From Lysobacterales bacterium PRO7 (GTDB lineage Bacteria > Pseudomonadota > Gammaproteobacteria > Xanthomonadales > Rhodanobacteraceae), in contig QWHH01000004.1 of NCBI GenBank assembly GCA_021404785.1, forward strand, positions 124,001 through 188,000: a DNA stretch of 64,000 nucleotides, in the 5' to 3' direction. This document shows positions 6,201-60,553 of this stretch, one piece after another. Position 1 is the stretch's first letter. Every line of letters begins with the position of its first letter. The notes under the pieces were generated by a model. That model was not told where the DNA came from. It saw nothing but the letters and a program-made list of their open reading frames with translations, and searched no databases. A program made the translations under genes and the position numbers.

Positions 6201-7112
6201 TTACAGGTGCAAGCTGATCGTCAGCTTCGCCTGCCACGGCGCGATGAGCTGGTTGCCGCGCACGTTCTGCCATAGCGGCGCTTCGATGTCCGCGAACACG
6301 CGCAGGCGCTTGACGCGCAGTTCCAGTCCGGGCGCCGCCAGCAGGCGCGAATAGCCGGTGTTGTCCGGCCCGGCGTTGCTGCCGGCATCGTGGCTGCGCC
6401 GCGAACCCAGTGCCTGCAGCATGGGGGTGAGTTCGACGCCGGGCGCCAATTGCCAACTCGTGGGGTAGATGCCGAACCCGGCATTGAATTCCGTGCCGGG
6501 ACGATAGCCGCCCTGGGTGACGATGGGCGCATCCACGATTGCCTGCACGAAGCCGCTCCAGTCGCTGCCCAGGCCACCGATGCGGAATTGATGGTAGCCG
6601 CCAAGCAGCAGGTCGGTGCTGCCGGTGCCGATTTGCGTGTCGCGATCGAAACCCGGGACTTTCCAGTCGCCATTGGCCAGCTTCAATCCGAATGAAATAC
6701 CGCTGGACATGTCGCCAGAAAATCCCGTGTACATGCCCATCAGTCGAATGTCGCCGATCTGTCCGTGGTCAGTCGTGACCGCCACGTCATCGTCGATGGT
6801 CGAGAAGTGGCGCTGGTCGTAAGGAACCGAGATCGAAAATCCCCAATCGCGACCGAACATGTGGCGCAGACCCACGCTTTGATACAGCGTGCGGATGTGC
6901 TGGTCGTCGTTGGCGGTGGCGGGTGCGGAGGACGTGCCCGACCAGTTGTCGGTCTGGTCCAGATAGCTGAATTGATAGAACAGTTGCGTGCCGGTGCCTT
7001 GCGGCAGCATCTCCGATCCGCCTACTTCAAAAACGCCGCAGCCGCAGGCGCAGGCCCACGCATGCAAGGGCGTGCACAGTGCGCAAATTGCGGCAAGACG
7101 GCGTAACGACAT
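6201..7112 (-). CDS. Outer-membrane beta-barrel-like exported protein
   Basis: 303 residues from the ATG at 7112, chosen because GGAGGA sits 7 bases upstream and the start leads directly into a signal peptide (MSLRRLAAICALCTPLHAWA); the frame runs 37 codons further upstream without such a signal. The mature N-terminus has a striking CACGCGVFEVGG motif. The rest alternates aromatic and polar residues in strand-like stretches (TQLFYQFSYLD, WGFSISVPYDQR, GQIGDIRLMGMYTGF, GISFGLKLANGDW) and ends with KLTISLHL, consistent with an outer-membrane barrel closing in an amphipathic strand. This resembles proteins annotated loosely as transporters, but no substrate can be read from the sequence. Transcribed divergently from the efflux operon. 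Confidence 0.65.
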   Translation of the reverse strand: MSLRRLAAICALCTPLHAWACACGCGVFEVGGSEMLPQGTGTQLFYQFSYLDQTDNWSGTSSAPATANDDQHIRTLYQSVGLRHMFGRDWGFSISVPYDQRHFSTIDDDVAVTTDHGQIGDIRLMGMYTGFSGDMSSGISFGLKLANGDWKVPGFDRDTQIGTGSTDLLLGGYHQFRIGGLGSDWSGFVQAIVDAPIVTQGGYRPGTEFNAGFGIYPTSWQLAPGVELTPMLQALGSRRSHDAGSNAGPDNTGYSRLLAAPGLELRVKRLRVFADIEAPLWQNVRGNQLIAPWQAKLTISLHL

Positions 7113-7243
7113 GCGTGGATCCTCCCATGACATCGGCTGTGTATTGTACGTGTGCCCATCGGCATCCCGGCGTTCAATGGCGCAGAAAATGTGCCGGAAG
7201 TAACGGCCGCCACCCGCGTCCATTGCGATTTACAACCGCTTAC

Positions 7244-7271
7244 TTTCGGCGCGGGCCGACTACGCTATAGT
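7244..7271 (+). promoter_or_regulatory. Possible sigma-70-like promoter of the efflux operon
   Basis: TTTCGG (7244-7249) and TATAGT (7266-7271) are separated by 16 bases, 45 bases ahead of the mdtA ATG. The -10 is good and the -35 weak. It lies in the intergenic region between the divergent outer-membrane gene and mdtA. This is a by-eye assignment with no flanking support. Confidence 0.3.
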
Positions 7272-7315
7272 CGCCGGTGTCTGCGCCCCGTGCGGCGCGC
7301 GTTCACGCCATCGAC

Positions 7316-49491: not shown

Positions 49492-50376
49492 TCATTCCAG
49501 TTCCCGGTGGAAGGTGAGCACCTGTTCGCGCGTGGCGCGGAAATGCGCGGCGAGGCTCTCGGCCAGGTACACCGAACGATGCCGCCCGCCGGTGCAGCCG
49601 ATGCAGATCGTCACGTATGAGCGGTTCTCGGCCTCGAAGCGCGGCAGCCAGGTGTCGAGGAAGTCGCGCACCTGAGATAGATACTGTCCGACTTCCGGCT
49701 TGCCTTCGAGCCAGGCGCGCACTGCGGCATCGCGACCGGACAGCGGCCGCAGCGATGCTTCCCAATGCGGATTGGGCAGGCAGCGCGCGTCGAACACGAA
49801 ATCCGCATCGGCCGGCACGCCGCGCTTGTAGGCGAAGGACTCGAACAGCAGCGACAGCGGCCCGCCGATCATGCCCAGTTCCGTCGCGATCAGACGGCGC
49901 AACTGATGCACGTTCAAGTCGCCGGTATCGACCACGCGCTCGGCAATGGCGACAACGGGTTTGAGCAGCTTGCGTTCGCGCGCGATCGCATCCCCGAGCG
50001 ATACGCCTTCGCCGGTCAGCGGATGGCGCCGGCGCGTGTCGGAGTAACGCTTGAGCAGCACTTCGTCGCGCGCGTCAAGAAAAATCAAACGATGCTCGAT
50101 GCCGCGCTGCGCGAGGCCGGCCAGGATCGCAGGCAACTGGTTCAGATCCTGCGGCCGGTTGCGCACGTCGATGCCAACCGCCAGGCGCGGATGCACGCCC
50201 GCGCGCGTAGCTTCGTCCACGAACGCCGGCAGCAACGCGCCGGGCAGGTTGTCCACGCAGTAATAGTCGAGGTCTTCCAGCGCGCGCAACGCGATGGTCT
50301 TGCCCGAACCCGACATGCCGCTGACGATGATCAGGCGGGTGGCGGGTGGGGCGGGATTGTCTGGGGTGGATGCCAT
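49492..50376 (-). CDS. rapZ: RNase adapter protein RapZ (YvcJ family)
   Basis: 294 residues from the ATG at 50376. Walker A IIVSGMSGSGKTIALRALEDL, then YYCVDNLPGALL, FLDARDEVLLKRYSDTRRRHPL, and the C-terminal metabolite-sensing part FDARCLPNPHWE and TICIGCTGGRHRSVYLAESL. In Escherichia coli RapZ guides RNase E to the small RNA GlmZ and senses glucosamine-6-phosphate; here the pairing with PTS genes is the common proteobacterial order. First gene of the minus-strand operon rapZ-EIIA-ptsH-ptsI. Confidence 0.95.
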   Translation of the reverse strand: MASTPDNPAPPATRLIIVSGMSGSGKTIALRALEDLDYYCVDNLPGALLPAFVDEATRAGVHPRLAVGIDVRNRPQDLNQLPAILAGLAQRGIEHRLIFLDARDEVLLKRYSDTRRRHPLTGEGVSLGDAIARERKLLKPVVAIAERVVDTGDLNVHQLRRLIATELGMIGGPLSLLFESFAYKRGVPADADFVFDARCLPNPHWEASLRPLSGRDAAVRAWLEGKPEVGQYLSQVRDFLDTWLPRFEAENRSYVTICIGCTGGRHRSVYLAESLAAHFRATREQVLTFHRELE

Positions 50377-50458
50377 GCGGCAGATTCGCGGCGAAGTCGA
50401 ATCAGTATATTCGGCCCCGAACCCGATGGGGAAAGAAGACATTTTGCCTTGGTGTCGC

Positions 50459-50464
50459 TACACT
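50459..50464 (+). promoter_or_regulatory. Possible -10 element of the XRE regulator gene
   Basis: TACACT ends directly before the first operator-like repeat, which would then cover the transcription start, the position typical of repressor control. No matching -35 is clear at the proper distance. Confidence 0.3.
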
Positions 50465-50479
50465 AACAGCATTACTGTC
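50465..50479 (+). promoter_or_regulatory. Operator-like inverted repeat, site 1
   Basis: AACAGCATTACTGTC fits AACAG-N5-CTGTT with one mismatch in the right arm. It lies 22-36 bases ahead of the regulator ATG. Confidence 0.5.
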
Positions 50480-50483
50480 GTCA

Positions 50484-50498
50484 AACAGGAATTCTGTT
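50484..50498 (+). promoter_or_regulatory. Operator-like inverted repeat, site 2, over the ribosome binding site
   Basis: AACAGGAATTCTGTT has perfect AACAG/CTGTT arms. It contains CAGGA, the likely ribosome binding site of the regulator gene, and ends 2 bases before its ATG. Confidence 0.55.
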
Positions 50499-50500
50499 GT

Positions 50501-50902
50501 ATGAAAAACAGTAGCTCTGTTGCCCGCAAATCGACATCCGTGCTGCGCGACCGCATCCGTCAGTCGCGCGAGATGCTTGGCTTGAGTCGCGCGGAACTCG
50601 CGCGCGAGGTTGGCGTGGTCGCCAGCGCGGCGGCGCAGAGGGAACAATCCGAGGGGACGACACCCAGTCTCGAAAATCTCGCTGCCATCGCGCAAGTCAC
50701 TGAAGTATCGTTCGATTGGCTCGCCACTGGGCGCGGATATGCGCGCTTTCGCGGCGGCCATGAAGACCTTGCGATCCATCCGGACAGCCTCGCCATGGAT
50801 CCGTTTGAAGAAGAAATGCTCGCGCTCGTGCGCAAGATGCCGCAGTCGCATCGGTACCCGTTTCTGACCTATCTCAAAGCGGTCTATCCGGGCAAGCGCT
50901 AA
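50501..50902 (+). CDS. XRE/Cro-CI-type transcriptional repressor of the inserted module
   Basis: 133 residues from the ATG at 50501, which has CAGGA upstream. Residues 15-76 form an HTH_3 domain: LRDRIRQSREMLGLSRAELA, EVGVVASAAAQREQSEGTTP with the recognition helix, then SLENLAAIAQVTEVSFDWLATGRG, a wording common in phage-type repressors. The remainder is a short helical tail ending in FLTYLKAVYPGKR with no peptidase or sensor domain. Four copies of an inverted repeat flank the gene, three around its start and one after its stop. It therefore probably represses itself and perhaps the two genes downstream. Divergent from rapZ by 124 bases. Confidence 0.8.
   Translation: MKNSSSVARKSTSVLRDRIRQSREMLGLSRAELAREVGVVASAAAQREQSEGTTPSLENLAAIAQVTEVSFDWLATGRGYARFRGGHEDLAIHPDSLAMDPFEEEMLALVRKMPQSHRYPFLTYLKAVYPGKR
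50507..50521 (+). promoter_or_regulatory. Operator-like inverted repeat, site 3, inside the regulator coding region
   Basis: AACAGTAGCTCTGTT has perfect AACAG/CTGTT arms and spans codons 3-7 of the regulator gene. Its centre is 23 bases from that of site 2. Confidence 0.5.
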
Positions 50903-50911
50903 ACCCAAACC

Positions 50912-50926
50912 AACAGCAATACTGCT
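50912..50926 (+). promoter_or_regulatory. Operator-like inverted repeat, site 4, ahead of the phospholipase gene
   Basis: AACAGCAATACTGCT matches AACAG-N5-CTGTT with one mismatch and shares AACAGCA-TACTG with site 1. It begins 10 bases after the regulator stop codon, in the 180-base region before the phospholipase-like gene, where a second promoter would be expected. Confidence 0.45.
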
Positions 50927-51082
50927 CGTTTTGCTCACGTTTTTGCTATTGCGCCGGCCATTGCGGCGGGGATAGGGTGTGTGTCATCGACGGCGTGGGG
51001 CCTGTCGAGACGGAGTAGGGATGGATTCGGATACATCCCCTTTCCTCCGCATGACGCAGATGATCGATATGGGGAGAGTGCG

Positions 51083-51787
51083 ATGCGATTCGCTTCCAGA
51101 ATGTCTTTGGTATTGATTACCCTGTTCGCAAGCAACGGCGCCTTTGCGCAAAATCCTCAAAAATTGCCTGATGTTGTTGTAACGGCAACCACGCTGGATG
51201 GCGCATCGGTGATGATTCCATTCTTTCTGATGCAAACCATGTATGTGCAACTAAAACACGACGTGGCAACCATCGATGCCGACGACTACAGTACATCGTT
51301 GACGAAAGCCCAGGTTTGCTCGAAATTGAAGGCAAGCCAACCCACGGATTGTTCCATGGGCACCTTTCCCTCAGCGCCGGGGCTACCGAATGCCCAAGGA
51401 CTGCCATTTGCCGGAAACGGCTGTGGAGCTGATCCGTACAGTTCTTTCATCGGTGACCAGCTATTGAAAGCTTTTGAAAAAGAATATTCAGGTGATCTGA
51501 ATCGACCTGTAGCGCAAAATAGCGCAATTGATTTTACTGCTGCGTGCAACAATCATGACGGATGCTACACATCGCTAATTCCGCAAGGGAAATGTGATTC
51601 ATGGTTGGGACGGGATTTGCTTGGTGTCTGCGCAACTGCAGCATCAAACTCTGTTACTACATGCAATGCTTTTGCAAGCTACTATACATTGGCGGTAAGC
51701 AAAAAAGGGGCCGAGGCATATTACGCGGACCAGAAAAATCTCAAATGCTCTACCTGGGGCAATTCTATGAAAGCGAACAAGTGCTAG
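51083..51787 (+). CDS. Secreted phospholipase A2-like protein
   Basis: 234 residues. The ATG at 51083 follows GGGGAGA and opens a signal peptide (FASRMSLVLITLFASNGAFA). The mature protein shows the PLA2 core: a calcium-loop-like NGCGADPYSSFIGD at about 112-125, then AACNNHDGCY at 154-162 with the His158-Asp159 dyad, and CDSWLGRDLLGVC at 171-183 for the second core helix; about ten cysteines could form disulphides. PLA2 enzymes cut the sn-2 ester of phospholipids with calcium. The G+C content is visibly lower than in neighbours (24 of 60 bases at 51481-51540). It is followed after 4 bases by a membrane protein. It could be a toxin-like effector or a lipid-remodelling enzyme. Confidence 0.7.
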   Translation: MRFASRMSLVLITLFASNGAFAQNPQKLPDVVVTATTLDGASVMIPFFLMQTMYVQLKHDVATIDADDYSTSLTKAQVCSKLKASQPTDCSMGTFPSAPGLPNAQGLPFAGNGCGADPYSSFIGDQLLKAFEKEYSGDLNRPVAQNSAIDFTAACNNHDGCYTSLIPQGKCDSWLGRDLLGVCATAASNSVTTCNAFASYYTLAVSKKGAEAYYADQKNLKCSTWGNSMKANKC

Positions 51788-51791
51788 TACA

Positions 51792-52673
51792 ATGGCTAAG
51801 TCACTTTCCTACATATTGCTCACTTTGGCCGCAGCCGGCTTGCTTGGGCTCGCAATACATCGTTTGTGGCAGGACAAATACGTATTGCCATCGGGCCAAT
51901 CCGTGACATCTATGTCGATTGAAACCATGCCGTCCACCACGAGTGCCGATAAACACAGCCACACTGTCAGAACACCTCCATTCCCGAATACGGTTGAGAT
52001 ACCGCCACGGTATCAACTCCCCGGCGTTGCGAGTGTGCGAACTGCTGACGATTTCGATGCGTGGATGAACAAATACCCGCTCGACGAGAGAAAGCATATC
52101 GAGGCATTTGCCGATCGCTACTACGGGGTCTACGAAATTTCATCAGCGGAGCAGATTGCCTGGATGGCCCAGGCAGGGTACCCCATGCCGGAAGATTTAA
52201 TTGTCGCTGCCGGCATGAGTAATGCGGAGCTTCAAGACCTTGTTTCCAAGGGCAATGTCAAAGCGGCGATCTTGCTCAGCGATCGCGAATTGGGTGCTGC
52301 TATCGAAAAACTCAAACAACTGGATCCGGCCTCGCAAGAAGCAAAAGAAGCACGATCAAGCAATTTCTCCAGCTTGGCCGCAGTGTTGAACTCAGATACG
52401 CCATTCAAGGGTTATGCCGAAGCGGCCGATGCCATGTATCTCAACCAAGATCGCGACGCGCGTGCTAGCGAGGTTGCGGCCGGGCTTATCCGTTCCGCCG
52501 CTTTGGGCGATACGCGCGCCGCGGATGTGCTCTCGGAGTATGCCGATGCGGGTGTCATTTCCGACCAAGAGCTTATCACCGCATTACGCATTTATGTCGA
52601 TCTGGGGGGGGACCAAATCCGTTTGCGCAATCTGGAGAACTGCCCGCTTATAAGACCGATCCCGTCCAAATGA
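51792..52673 (+). CDS. Membrane-anchored protein paired with the phospholipase, unknown family
   Basis: 293 residues. One N-terminal membrane helix (LSYILLTLAAAGLLGLAIH) places the rest in the periplasm. A Ser/Thr/Pro-rich linker follows, then an all-helical domain: FDAWMNKYPLDERKHIEAFA, SSAEQIAWMAQAGYPMPEDL, LSDRELGAAIEKLKQLDP and EVAAGLIRSAALGDTRAADV, reminiscent of Sel1/TPR-type helical pairs but without a clear consensus. The start lies 4 bases after the phospholipase stop, so they form one transcript. Candidate roles are an immunity or chaperone partner for the phospholipase; this is inferred from position only. It ends 51 bases before the convergent hprK. Confidence 0.65.
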   Translation: MAKSLSYILLTLAAAGLLGLAIHRLWQDKYVLPSGQSVTSMSIETMPSTTSADKHSHTVRTPPFPNTVEIPPRYQLPGVASVRTADDFDAWMNKYPLDERKHIEAFADRYYGVYEISSAEQIAWMAQAGYPMPEDLIVAAGMSNAELQDLVSKGNVKAAILLSDRELGAAIEKLKQLDPASQEAKEARSSNFSSLAAVLNSDTPFKGYAEAADAMYLNQDRDARASEVAAGLIRSAALGDTRAADVLSEYADAGVISDQELITALRIYVDLGGDQIRLRNLENCPLIRPIPSK

Positions 52674-52724
52674 GAAAAACGCAAATCGTGACTGCGATCT
52701 GTCGAAACAGTAGGAATCTGATTC

Positions 52725-53681
52725 TCACCATGGCGCCTGCCGCTGCATCTGGTGCGCCTGGCGGTCGAGGAAGGTTTGCGCGGGATCGATGCCCTTGGTC
52801 TTGAGCACGTGGTTGCGTACGGCGGCTTCGACGAGCACGGCGAGGTTGCGGCCGGGGGCTACGGGAATGGTGGTCTGCGGGATTTTCGTGTCAAGGATTT
52901 CGCGGTAGCTGTTCGCGCCGTAGATGCGTTCGAGTCCCGACTGTTCGATCGGCTGCTCGCGCGGCAGCAGGTCCAGGTGCACGACCAGGCGCAGGTATTT
53001 GGACTGCTTTACGGCTGTCTGTCCGAACATCTCGCGCACGTTGAGGATACCGAGGCCACGCACTTCGAGCAGGTCCTGCAACATCTCCGGACAGTTGCCG
53101 TCGATCACGTCCGGCGCGATCTGGATGAATTCCGGCGCGTCGTCGGCAACGAGTCGATGGCCGCGCGTGATCAGTTCCAGCGCCAGTTCGCTCTTGCCCG
53201 AACCGGATTCGCCGGTGATCAGCACGCCGATGGAATACACCTCCATCAGCACGCCGTGCAGGGTTACGCGCCGCGCGAGCATGCGCGCGAGGTGGTATTG
53301 CAGGTAAGTGAGCAGTTCGTGGCCGCGCTGGCTGCTCGTCCACACCGGCGTGCCGGATTCGTTGGCGGCGTCGCGCAGGTCGGCGGGCACGGCCTGATCC
53401 TTGGTCACGATCACCGCGGTCGGCGTGAAGCCCATGATCTTCTCGACCATCTCCCAGCGCTGGCGCGAGTCGAGGCTGTCGAGCCAAGCCAGTTCCTCGG
53501 AACCGACGATCTGGATCTTGTTCGGATAGATGATGTTGAGGTATCCGGCGAGCGATGGCCGGCGCGGCTGCTTTTCCGCCGGCACGATGGCGCGATGTTC
53601 GCCGCGCTGGCCGGCGACCCAGCGCAGGCTCAGGCGTTGGCTGACCTTGTCGAACAGTTCGCGGGCGGTGAGGCGTTCCAT
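52725..53681 (-). CDS. hprK: HPr kinase/phosphorylase
   Basis: 318 residues. Walker [20 protein letters not shown], family signature [30 protein letters not shown] and [20 protein letters not shown] are all present; the N-terminal domain contains [20 protein letters not shown]. It phosphorylates and dephosphorylates HPr at Ser46 depending on metabolite state; the HPr encoded here keeps that serine. In many proteobacteria hprK is directly followed by rapZ; here a three-gene, opposite-strand block of 2.3 kb separates them. Confidence 0.95.
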
Positions 53682-59920: not shown

Positions 59921-60553
59921 ATGCGCCTGCAACGACTCGTAATTCTCGTGCTCGCCGCTTTCATGCTGGCCGGCTGCGGCTACAACGCGATCCAGTCCAA
60001 GGACGAAGCGGTCAAGGCCGCGTGGTCCGAGGTGGTCAACCAGTACCAGCGCCGCGCCGATCTCGTGCCGAACCTGGTCAACACGGTGAAAGGCTACGCC
60101 GAACACGAGCAGTCCACGCTCGAAGCGGTGACCAACGCGCGCGCCCAGGTCGGCAAGATCACGCTGACCACCGACGACCTCAACGACGAGGCCAAGATGA
60201 AGGCATTCCAGCAGGCACAGGGCGAGCTGTCCGGCGCGCTGTCGCGGCTGATGGCGGTGTCGGAAAACTATCCGAACCTCAAGGCCGATTCCCTGTTCCA
60301 GACCCTGCAGGCCCAGCTCGAAGGCACTGAGAACCGCATCGCCGTGGCGCGCAATCGCTATATCACTGCGGTGCAGGATTTCAACGTGCTGGTACGAAGC
60401 TTCCCGCAGAATCTCACCGCCAAGTTGTTCGGCTACTCGACGAAAGCGAACTTCACGGTGGAAAACGAGAAGCAGATTTCCGTCGCGCCGACGGTGGATT
60501 TCAACAAGCCCGCAGCGCCGCCGGCACAGCCACCCGCGCAACCGCAGAACTGA
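59921..60553 (+). CDS. LemA-family lipoprotein
   Basis: 210 residues. Signal and lipobox LVLAAFMLAGCGYN, lipidated at about Cys19. The LemA core is complete: DEAVKAAWSEVVNQYQRRADLVPNLVNTVKGYA, HEQSTLEAVTNARAQ, LSRLMAVSENYPNLKADSLFQTLQAQLEGTENRIAVARNRY (read in parts) and VQDFNVLVRSFPQNL. The Pro/Ala-rich end is disordered. Together with the two TPM-domain proteins downstream (gaps of 3 and 1 bases) it forms a conserved operon of unknown envelope role. Confidence 0.92.
   Translation: MRLQRLVILVLAAFMLAGCGYNAIQSKDEAVKAAWSEVVNQYQRRADLVPNLVNTVKGYAEHEQSTLEAVTNARAQVGKITLTTDDLNDEAKMKAFQQAQGELSGALSRLMAVSENYPNLKADSLFQTLQAQLEGTENRIAVARNRYITAVQDFNVLVRSFPQNLTAKLFGYSTKANFTVENEKQISVAPTVDFNKPAAPPAQPPAQPQN

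What the first reader, a model, noticed from the sequence alone, without database searches (positions are those of the whole stretch)
50377..52724. Self-regulated phospholipase A2 module inserted between rapZ and hprK
Seen: the minus-strand PTS genes are interrupted by a plus-strand block of XRE regulator, secreted PLA2-like protein (NGCG, CNNHDGC, CDSWLGRDLLGVC) and a membrane-anchored helical protein starting 4 bases after the PLA2 stop. The block is AT-richer (24 of 60 G+C at 51481-51540, against 42 of 60 at 60001-60060). Known: hprK and rapZ are usually close neighbours, and secreted PLA2s of this cysteine-rich type are rare in such bacteria. Inference: a horizontally acquired effector with a partner that protects against, anchors or activates it, under its own repressor. 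I cannot assign it to a named toxin, T6SS-effector or phage system.
Basis: partly seen in the sequence, partly recalled or inferred. Interest (0 to 1): 0.8.

Follow-up and report, generated by a model that had tools for sequence, protein, structure and literature searches.

The report
Secreted phospholipase toxin with immunity gene
A bacterium carries an inserted gene pair that most likely makes a secreted, membrane-cutting enzyme used against rival bacteria, together with a membrane-tethered protein that protects the producer.

Summary
Between hprK and rapZ lies a 2.3-kb insert: an XRE regulator, a Sec-exported, Cys-rich phospholipase A2-like protein (PLA2) with the catalytic His-Asp pair, and a membrane-anchored helical partner. 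A near relative (HprK 99.7% identical) has the empty site; two other relatives carry different inserts there.
The PLA2-partner pair recurs elsewhere in this genome and across the order, at unrelated loci. At the 12 best-matching PLA2 places the partner follows in 11; at the twelfth the contig ends. Eight weaker PLA2 places have no partner. Partners also occur alone, in tandem, and beside broken PLA2 genes, which fits an immunity gene better than a secretion chaperone. No XRE homologue was found at the eight other loci compared.
Right after the signal peptide the closest full-length PLA2s carry a motif resembling the TonB box of a TonB-dependent receptor. Best reading: a secreted phospholipase bacteriocin with periplasmic immunity, laid out like burkhocin M or colicin M but with a PLA2 warhead and an immunity family I found undescribed. 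The toxin-immunity reading is fairly well supported; TonB entry is a prediction. Nothing was tested in the laboratory.

The parts
50384..52723 (.). Inserted segment between rapZ and hprK
   Evidence: Boundaries of DNA similarity to the empty site of genome G016 (locus L035)
50465..50521 (.). Three AACAGNNNNNCTG dyads upstream of and at the start of the XRE gene (putative operators)
   Evidence: function inferred
50501..50902 (+). XRE-family regulator, 133 aa
   Evidence: HTH_3 E=3.4e-10; phage-repressor-like profiles
50912..50926 (.). Fourth dyad, between XRE and PLA2 genes
   Evidence: function inferred
51083..51787 (+). Secreted phospholipase A2-like toxin, 234 aa
51083..51148 (+). Sec signal peptide (residues 1-22, AFA|Q), read by eye
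   Evidence: Sequence; aligned in relatives; no signal-peptide predictor was run
51164..51187 (+). TonB-box-like motif LPDVVVTA (residues 28-35)
   Evidence: receptor comparator
51554..51559 (+). Catalytic His158-Asp159 codons
   Evidence: Invariant in the 13 rows of A4; catalytic role from knowledge of the PLA2 fold
51792..52673 (+). Membrane-anchored helical partner, putative immunity protein, 293 aa
51795..51878 (+). N-terminal anchor helix of the partner (residues 2-29)
   Evidence: AlphaFold2 model helix 2-29; hydropathy

Best explanation
A horizontally acquired antibacterial toxin-immunity pair. The PLA2 leaves the cytoplasm by the Sec route, is released, and (inferred) enters the periplasm of related bacteria, possibly by showing TonB a TonB-box-like N-terminus, where it hydrolyses phospholipids. 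The partner is tethered to the membrane by an N-terminal helix (a lipoprotein anchor in some relatives), faces the periplasm and (inferred) binds and blocks the PLA2, protecting producer and kin. Shown by sequence: signal peptide (by eye), PLA2 active-site residues, tight genetic linkage at many loci, co-divergence, orphan and tandem partners, empty site. Inferred: enzymatic activity, killing, neutralisation, export and entry routes, control by the XRE regulator.
For: Pair linkage: 11 of the 12 PLA2 places with E<=1e-12 have a partner directly downstream; the twelfth (G010) is cut by the contig end. The loci are unrelated: near lptG, a glycosyltransferase-like gene, a clpA-like gene, or mutS plus an integrase remnant (named by eye). 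A second pair with two tandem partners (53% identical) lies in this same genome. Partner reading frame open where the PLA2 is broken: G003:C31, G249:C1:902476, and G002:C62 (24-residue PLA2 tail left; partner open to the contig end); partners with no PLA2 in the stretch read: G003:C65 and G249:C1:3083204. Distances of PLA2 and partner correlate, r=0.81, 1 of 5000 permutations, 10 pairs. Anchor type varies, membrane helix or lipobox. Motif L[PDEG]x[VI]xVT[AG]: 5 hits in 417,214 residues, 4 in these PLA2s, 1 in a TonB-dependent receptor. No T6SS sheath gene found in this genome. Precedents: a PLA2-like domain is toxic in the E. coli periplasm and neutralised by its neighbour (PMC8263058, passages); burkhocin M has a signal peptide, a conserved stretch at the mature N-terminus proposed as a TonB box, membrane-associated immunity proteins and orphan immunity genes (PMC4661593, passages).
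Against: Neither activity nor neutralisation was tested. The partner matches no Pfam or NCBIfam family convincingly; its profile's best PDB sequence matches are sigma-E-type RNA polymerase factors (E=0.0014-0.006 over about 85 residues), which I take for chance helical similarity because the model shows no significant fold match. The single-sequence Pfam score is under cut-off and Foldseek matches to PLA2 have E>0.1. Eight of 23 PLA2 places, all weak matches, have no partner. The TonB-box-like motif is seen even in the loose form in only 7 of 13 PLA2 rows. Broken genes come partly from draft genomes, where frameshifts can be errors; in G051 and G340 the partner itself contains stops. Architecture also fits a secretion chaperone.
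Confidence: 0.62

Rival explanations
1. The partner is a type II secretion chaperone or foldase (like LipB/Lif or CpaB): it helps the PLA2 fold in the periplasm and pass the type II system, and the PLA2 is an ordinary extracellular enzyme.
For: It meets the layout by which such chaperones were defined: adjacent gene, N-terminal membrane helix, periplasmic C-terminal part (PMC4713064, passages); the genome has a GspL match at C4:113732.
Against: No Lipase_chap match in 18 partners at E<=0.1; partners without PLA2, tandem partners and partners open beside broken PLA2 genes; lipobox in some members (L081 partner by eye); GspL found in only 7 of 14 genomes searched, though the family model may miss divergent GspL.
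Confidence: 0.22
2. The PLA2 acts on eukaryotes (fungi, amoebae) or scavenges lipids, and the partner only shields the producer's own membranes during export.
For: Tox-PLA2-like domains also occur in secreted proteins of fungi and oomycetes, and PLA2 in venoms (PMC3482391, passages); self-protection explains linkage.
Against: Orphan partners and a TonB-box-like motif make little sense for this role.
Confidence: 0.12
3. A fixed, vertically inherited housekeeping enzyme and accessory protein, only locally AT-rich.
For: None found beyond intact reading frames.
Against: 200 bp or less between hprK and rapZ in 11 of the 13 other genus genomes with an HprK match; the other two carry different inserts; PLA2 matched in 6 of 234 family genomes, own included.
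Confidence: 0.02

Closest known systems
Burkhocin M / colicin M with Bmi or Cmi immunity (PMC4661593 and PMC8469651, passages)
   Same: Small periplasm-acting enzyme toxin; in most burkhocins a signal peptide, followed at the mature N-terminus by a conserved stretch proposed as a TonB box; linked immunity protein, in Cmi and BmiB with one N-terminal helix facing the periplasm; orphan immunity genes; immunity tree similar to toxin tree
   Different: Warhead is a PLA2-type domain, not the lipid II phosphatase; immunity candidate is a roughly 230-330 aa helical protein, not compared directly with Cmi/Bmi; entry and killing untested
Tox-PLA2 of polymorphic toxins and Nte1/Nti1 of Neisseria cinerea (PMC3482391, PMC8263058, passages)
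   Same: PLA2 fold used as toxin domain; in Neisseria the neighbour gene neutralises
   Different: Those are C-terminal domains of large filament-, RHS- or PAAR-type proteins; here a small stand-alone Sec-exported protein in a genome where no T6SS sheath gene was found; in the table passage seen, PMC3482391 has a dash where an immunity family would stand for Tox-PLA2
Prokaryotic PLA2 (PF09056, 1faz) and PLA2G12 (PF06951)
   Same: His-Asp pair in CxxHD, Cys-rich helical domain
   Different: Extra N-terminal region with TonB-box-like motif and CxxLKxxxPxxC, and a linked partner
Lipase foldase / T2SS chaperone (LipB, CpaB; PMC4713064, passages)
   Same: Membrane-anchored periplasmic helper beside a secreted hydrolase
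   Different: No family match; orphans and tandem copies
T6SS phospholipase effectors Tle/Tli (largely recalled; Tli3 lipoprotein from an abstract in the listing)
   Same: Phospholipase plus periplasm-side immunity
   Different: Other folds and delivery; no VipB match in this genome; here a Sec signal peptide

Membership tests
Prokaryotic phospholipase A2 (PF09056) | Pfam curated cut-off | tested here: not met
   20.1 bits against 29.4
Prokaryotic phospholipase A2 (PF09056) | Catalytic His-Asp and conserved cysteines | tested here: met
   H158, D159, C161, C171, C222, C234 invariant in the 13 rows of A4; the short G051 piece, left out, lacks the Asp
Prokaryotic phospholipase A2 (PF09056) | PLA2 fold | tested here: inconclusive
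   Top three PDB matches are 1faz, 4aup_A, 4aup_B (prob 0.91-0.98) but E>0.1; profile matches four solved PLA2 sequences, E=3.8e-5 to 8.2e-4
Prokaryotic phospholipase A2 (PF09056) | Enzymatic activity | not testable with these tools
   needs assay
Toxin-immunity pair | Linked partner at different loci | tested here: met
   11 of 12 strong places, twelfth cut by contig end; 13 of 23 places in all
Toxin-immunity pair | Orphan, tandem or retained immunity genes | tested here: met
Toxin-immunity pair | Partner neutralises toxicity | not testable with these tools
   needs co-expression
Burkhocin M / colicin M bacteriocins | ColM catalytic domain | tested here: not met
   no such Pfam match; PLA2-type instead
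TonB-dependent bacteriocin (works-like claim) | TonB box near the mature N-terminus | tested here: inconclusive
   motif present and rare in the frames held, function untested
T2SS chaperone / lipase foldase | Lipase_chap similarity | tested here: not met
   not among the families matched by 18 partners at E<=0.1
T2SS chaperone / lipase foldase | Required for secretion | not testable with these tools
   needs deletion strain
T6SS effector | T6SS in the genome | tested here: not met
   No VipB (PF05943) match in G000; of 14 genomes searched 2 match, G249 and G436, the latter a PLA2 carrier

The most novel reading that the evidence does not exclude
A class of Sec-exported, TonB-box-carrying phospholipase A2 bacteriocins with a new membrane-tethered immunity family in Xanthomonadales, belonging to a polymorphic toxin family: in G483 a relative of the partner follows a secreted protein that keeps the CxxLKxxxPxxC stretch and the C-terminal end of the PLA2s but has a different, unassigned core.
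Probability: 0.3. Interest if true: 0.8.

Novelty: new variant of a known kind. Interest (0 to 1): 0.63.

Why it matters
PLA2 toxin domains had been noted in large polymorphic toxins, with no immunity family shown for them in the table passage I saw (PMC3482391). This would supply a stand-alone secreted version, a candidate immunity family, and a concrete hypothesis for entry (TonB), all testable with two small genes in laboratory E. coli. I saw no description of a phospholipase A2 bacteriocin or of this partner in the listings; these cover open-licence papers only, the listings were capped, and I read only passages of six papers.

Tried and rejected
Searches without result: PLA2 and partner in plasmid and phage records (0 of 72,556 and 0 of 50,697 records at E<=0.001); PLA2 in viral contigs (29 stretches matched a pattern, none confirmed); partner in Pfam, NCBIfam, PADLOC and only a weak PHROG match (E=0.038); partner fold in PDB (no match E<=0.001); a pattern with CTN-CCN codons for the TonB-box-like motif in the own genome (0 matches; it could not match the window gene, which uses TTG); promoter scan 50350-52800 (0 found); T2SSK family as a T2SS marker (it also rings in genomes such as B. 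subtilis, so not specific; not used as evidence).

Rejected: type VI effector; fixed housekeeping locus; 'XRE is part of the conserved module'. Dropped rows: G062 (match inside a 1064-aa reading frame, TraG-like by eye) and G462 (no profile match on rescan) from the partner list; L016 (G051; short, misaligned, no Asp at the active site) from the later PLA2 alignment. The five-hit TonB-box count is over reading frames of 200 aa or more from the loci held, wrong frames included, and the loci were chosen around these genes: it shows rarity, not a genome-wide rate. Genome searches score only the best first-look candidates per genome (5 to 12), so presence counts are lower bounds.
Full report
Observation. 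The insert is real and the coordinates are good. XRE 50501-50902, PLA2-like protein 51083-51787 (the longest ORF start, 50981, is not the likely start: the ATG at 51083 begins a clear signal peptide by eye) and partner 51792-52673 are all on the plus strand between minus-strand rapZ and hprK. G+C falls to 47.9% in the PLA2 gene against 63.6% for the window.

Empty site. I call the genus Rudaea-like because the contig of G010 (7,330 bases, PLA2 at 6618-7289) has the same length and match position as a record titled Rudaea sp.. Sixteen other genomes of the genus were searched; 13 gave an HprK match. In 11 of 13 the first aligned RapZ residue is 200 bp away or less; G016, whose HprK is 99.7% identical, has 113 bp and its DNA aligns to the window on either side of 50384-52723. 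G014 has about 1,050 bp there, holding a PIN_3 protein (E=2.1e-21), and in G007 no rapZ lies within the 1,500 bp held and other reading frames stand there. The junction is thus an insertion spot. G003, G004 and G010 have the short junction but carry PLA2 genes elsewhere, that of G003 broken.

What the PLA2 is. Alone it matches PF09056 below the cut-off (20.1 of 29.4 bits), and a PF09056 search of the own genome found nothing at E<=0.001. Of 13 family members, 9 match PLA2G12 and 7 match PF09056 at E<=0.1. A profile of the 13 finds four solved PLA2 sequences and nothing else at E<=10 (3.8e-5 to 8.2e-4). The AlphaFold2 model (mean pLDDT 76, mostly high after residue 70) has 1faz, 4aup_A and 4aup_B as its top three PDB matches (probability 0.91-0.98, but E>0.1). 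The His-Asp pair is invariant in the 13 rows.

Distribution. The PLA2 was matched in 8 of 100 relatives, 6 of 234 family genomes and 16 of 399 genomes drawn from the order; the sets overlap, each count includes the window's own genome, and each is a lower bound because only the best candidates are scored. Together they give 23 places in 21 genomes. A partner homologue lies directly downstream at 13 of 23 (for G488 the profile was built without it, E=1.6e-8; for G249 the PLA2 is a remnant). One place (G010) is cut by the contig end. At G096 a 232-aa protein with a hydrophobic N-terminus follows but does not match the profile. The remaining 8 (G377, G074, two in G292, G090, G368, G313, G406) are weak matches (E=3e-8 to 2e-5) of other PLA2 types with no partner match. 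Among the 12 places with E<=1e-12 the count is 11 with partner and 1 cut. The neighbourhoods looked at differ from place to place. The order is Xanthomonadales by the named records (Rudaea, Thermomonas; lineage recalled).

The partner. AlphaFold2 gives an N-terminal helix (2-29), a poorly predicted linker, and a well-predicted helical domain (mean pLDDT 85.7). No PDB fold match is significant, and no Pfam family is matched by more than one of 18 members at E<=0.1. Its profile's best PDB sequence matches are sigma-E-type factors (E=0.0014 to 0.006 over about 85 residues); I take these for chance. Three of the 18 aligned relatives show a lipobox by pattern, of which L096 is doubtful; the L081 partner also shows one when read from further upstream (by eye). 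Partner without PLA2 in the stretch read: G003:C65 and G249:C1:3083204, the latter beside a transposase-like gene by eye. Partner frame open but PLA2 broken: G003:C31 (frame interrupted), G249:C1:902476 (about 50-residue remnant with a stop), G002:C62 (only a 24-residue tail, weak match of 11.2 bits, in frame with an unrelated gene; partner open to the contig end). An intact PLA2 beside a clearly broken partner was not seen, but G340 (partner with two stops; PLA2 frame without a signal peptide, by eye) and G051 (partner match with one stop; only a PLA2 tail on the contig) look decayed on both sides. Twelve further genomes carry more distant partner relatives with no PLA2 match in the stretch fetched, three of those stretches ending or starting near the gene. 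In this genome a second pair (C13) has two tandem partners. Distances of PLA2 and partner correlate (r=0.81; 1 of 5000 permutations; 10 pairs, the first tandem copy used for C13); shared descent alone would also produce this.

Why immunity rather than chaperone. Type II secretion chaperones share the layout (PMC4713064, passages), so layout cannot decide. What decides, provisionally, is that partners persist without a PLA2, stay open where the PLA2 decays, and duplicate. Orphans of this kind were described for burkhocin M immunity genes (PMC4661593, passages). A GspL match is present in this genome at C4:113732, about 10 kb outside the window, so T2SS export is possible under either reading. 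No T6SS sheath gene was found in this genome; G436, another carrier, has one.

Entry. Directly after the signal peptide come LPDVVVTA (window), LPTITVTA (own second copy), LGTVVVTA (G010) and, in looser form, LPTITVIA (G004). The strict pattern L[PDEG]x[VI]xVT[AG] occurs 5 times in 417,214 residues of reading frames held: four in PLA2s (in one, L090, at residue 77 rather than next to the signal peptide) and one in a TonB-dependent receptor of G249 (LPGIVVTATR; Plug and barrel domains). With a looser pattern 7 of 13 PLA2 rows have it in the first 90 residues; L013 lacks the region in its aligned piece, and L015, L081, L082, L084 and L092 do not match. By a rough heuristic for secreted frames, 4 of 151 carry the loose motif within about 25 residues of cleavage, and all 4 are these PLA2s; the loose motif occurs 23 times in 507,161 residues overall. 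Colicin M and pyocin S2 use such a box for import (PMC8469651, PMC12927319, passages). The stretch may instead serve export or be coincidence; this is untested.

Regulation. Four AACAGNNNNNCTG sites (6 strand matches; mean of shuffles 1.2, largest 5) all lie within 50465-50924. They suggest autoregulation by the XRE protein and possibly control of the PLA2. No XRE homologue was found in L010-L017.

Wider family. In G483 a partner relative (E=1.9e-11) overlaps the end of a secreted-looking 297-aa protein which the PLA2 profile matches only at the CxxLKxxxPxxC stretch and at the C-terminal end, in the right order, with weak scores (4.2 and 1.9 bits), and which has no Pfam, PADLOC or PHROG match. 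If real, the PLA2 is one warhead of several. This is one case.

Verdict. A new variant of a known kind: a stand-alone secreted PLA2 toxin with a new candidate immunity family, most like the colicin M / burkhocin M scheme. Confidence 0.62 in the toxin-immunity reading, about 0.3 in the TonB-dependent bacteriocin reading.

Noticed in passing
L041 (G014, hprK-rapZ junction) 877-1514: The same junction holds a PIN_3 toxin-like gene with a small upstream gene, so hprK-rapZ is an insertion spot for different small modules in this genus.
   Followed up: partly
L036 2454-3954 (G007): A third kind of insert at the same junction: a methyltransferase-like and a lipoprotein-like reading frame (by eye, no profile run).
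   Followed up: no
L113 1270-2160 minus (G483:C140): Secreted-looking protein with the ends of the PLA2 family but an unassigned core, followed by a partner homologue; possible second warhead.
   Followed up: partly
L031 920-991 minus (G002:C62): A 24-residue PLA2-like tail fused in frame to the end of an unrelated reading frame, next to a partner gene that is open to the contig end: likely trace of toxin deletion.
   Followed up: partly
L086, L088 (G074, G090): Lipoprotein-like PLA2s of another type without a partner match; possibly housekeeping enzymes.
   Followed up: no
L090 / L017 (G096:C33): PLA2 with the TonB-box-like stretch further inside the protein, followed by a 232-aa protein with a hydrophobic N-terminus that does not match the partner profile.
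   Followed up: partly
L103 6549-7319 (G275:C44): Lipoprotein-type partner relative near a reading frame that looks like a rifampin ADP-ribosyltransferase (by eye).
   Followed up: no
G000:C4:113732 (about 10 kb before the window): GspL match, so a type II secretion cluster probably lies just outside the window.
   Followed up: no
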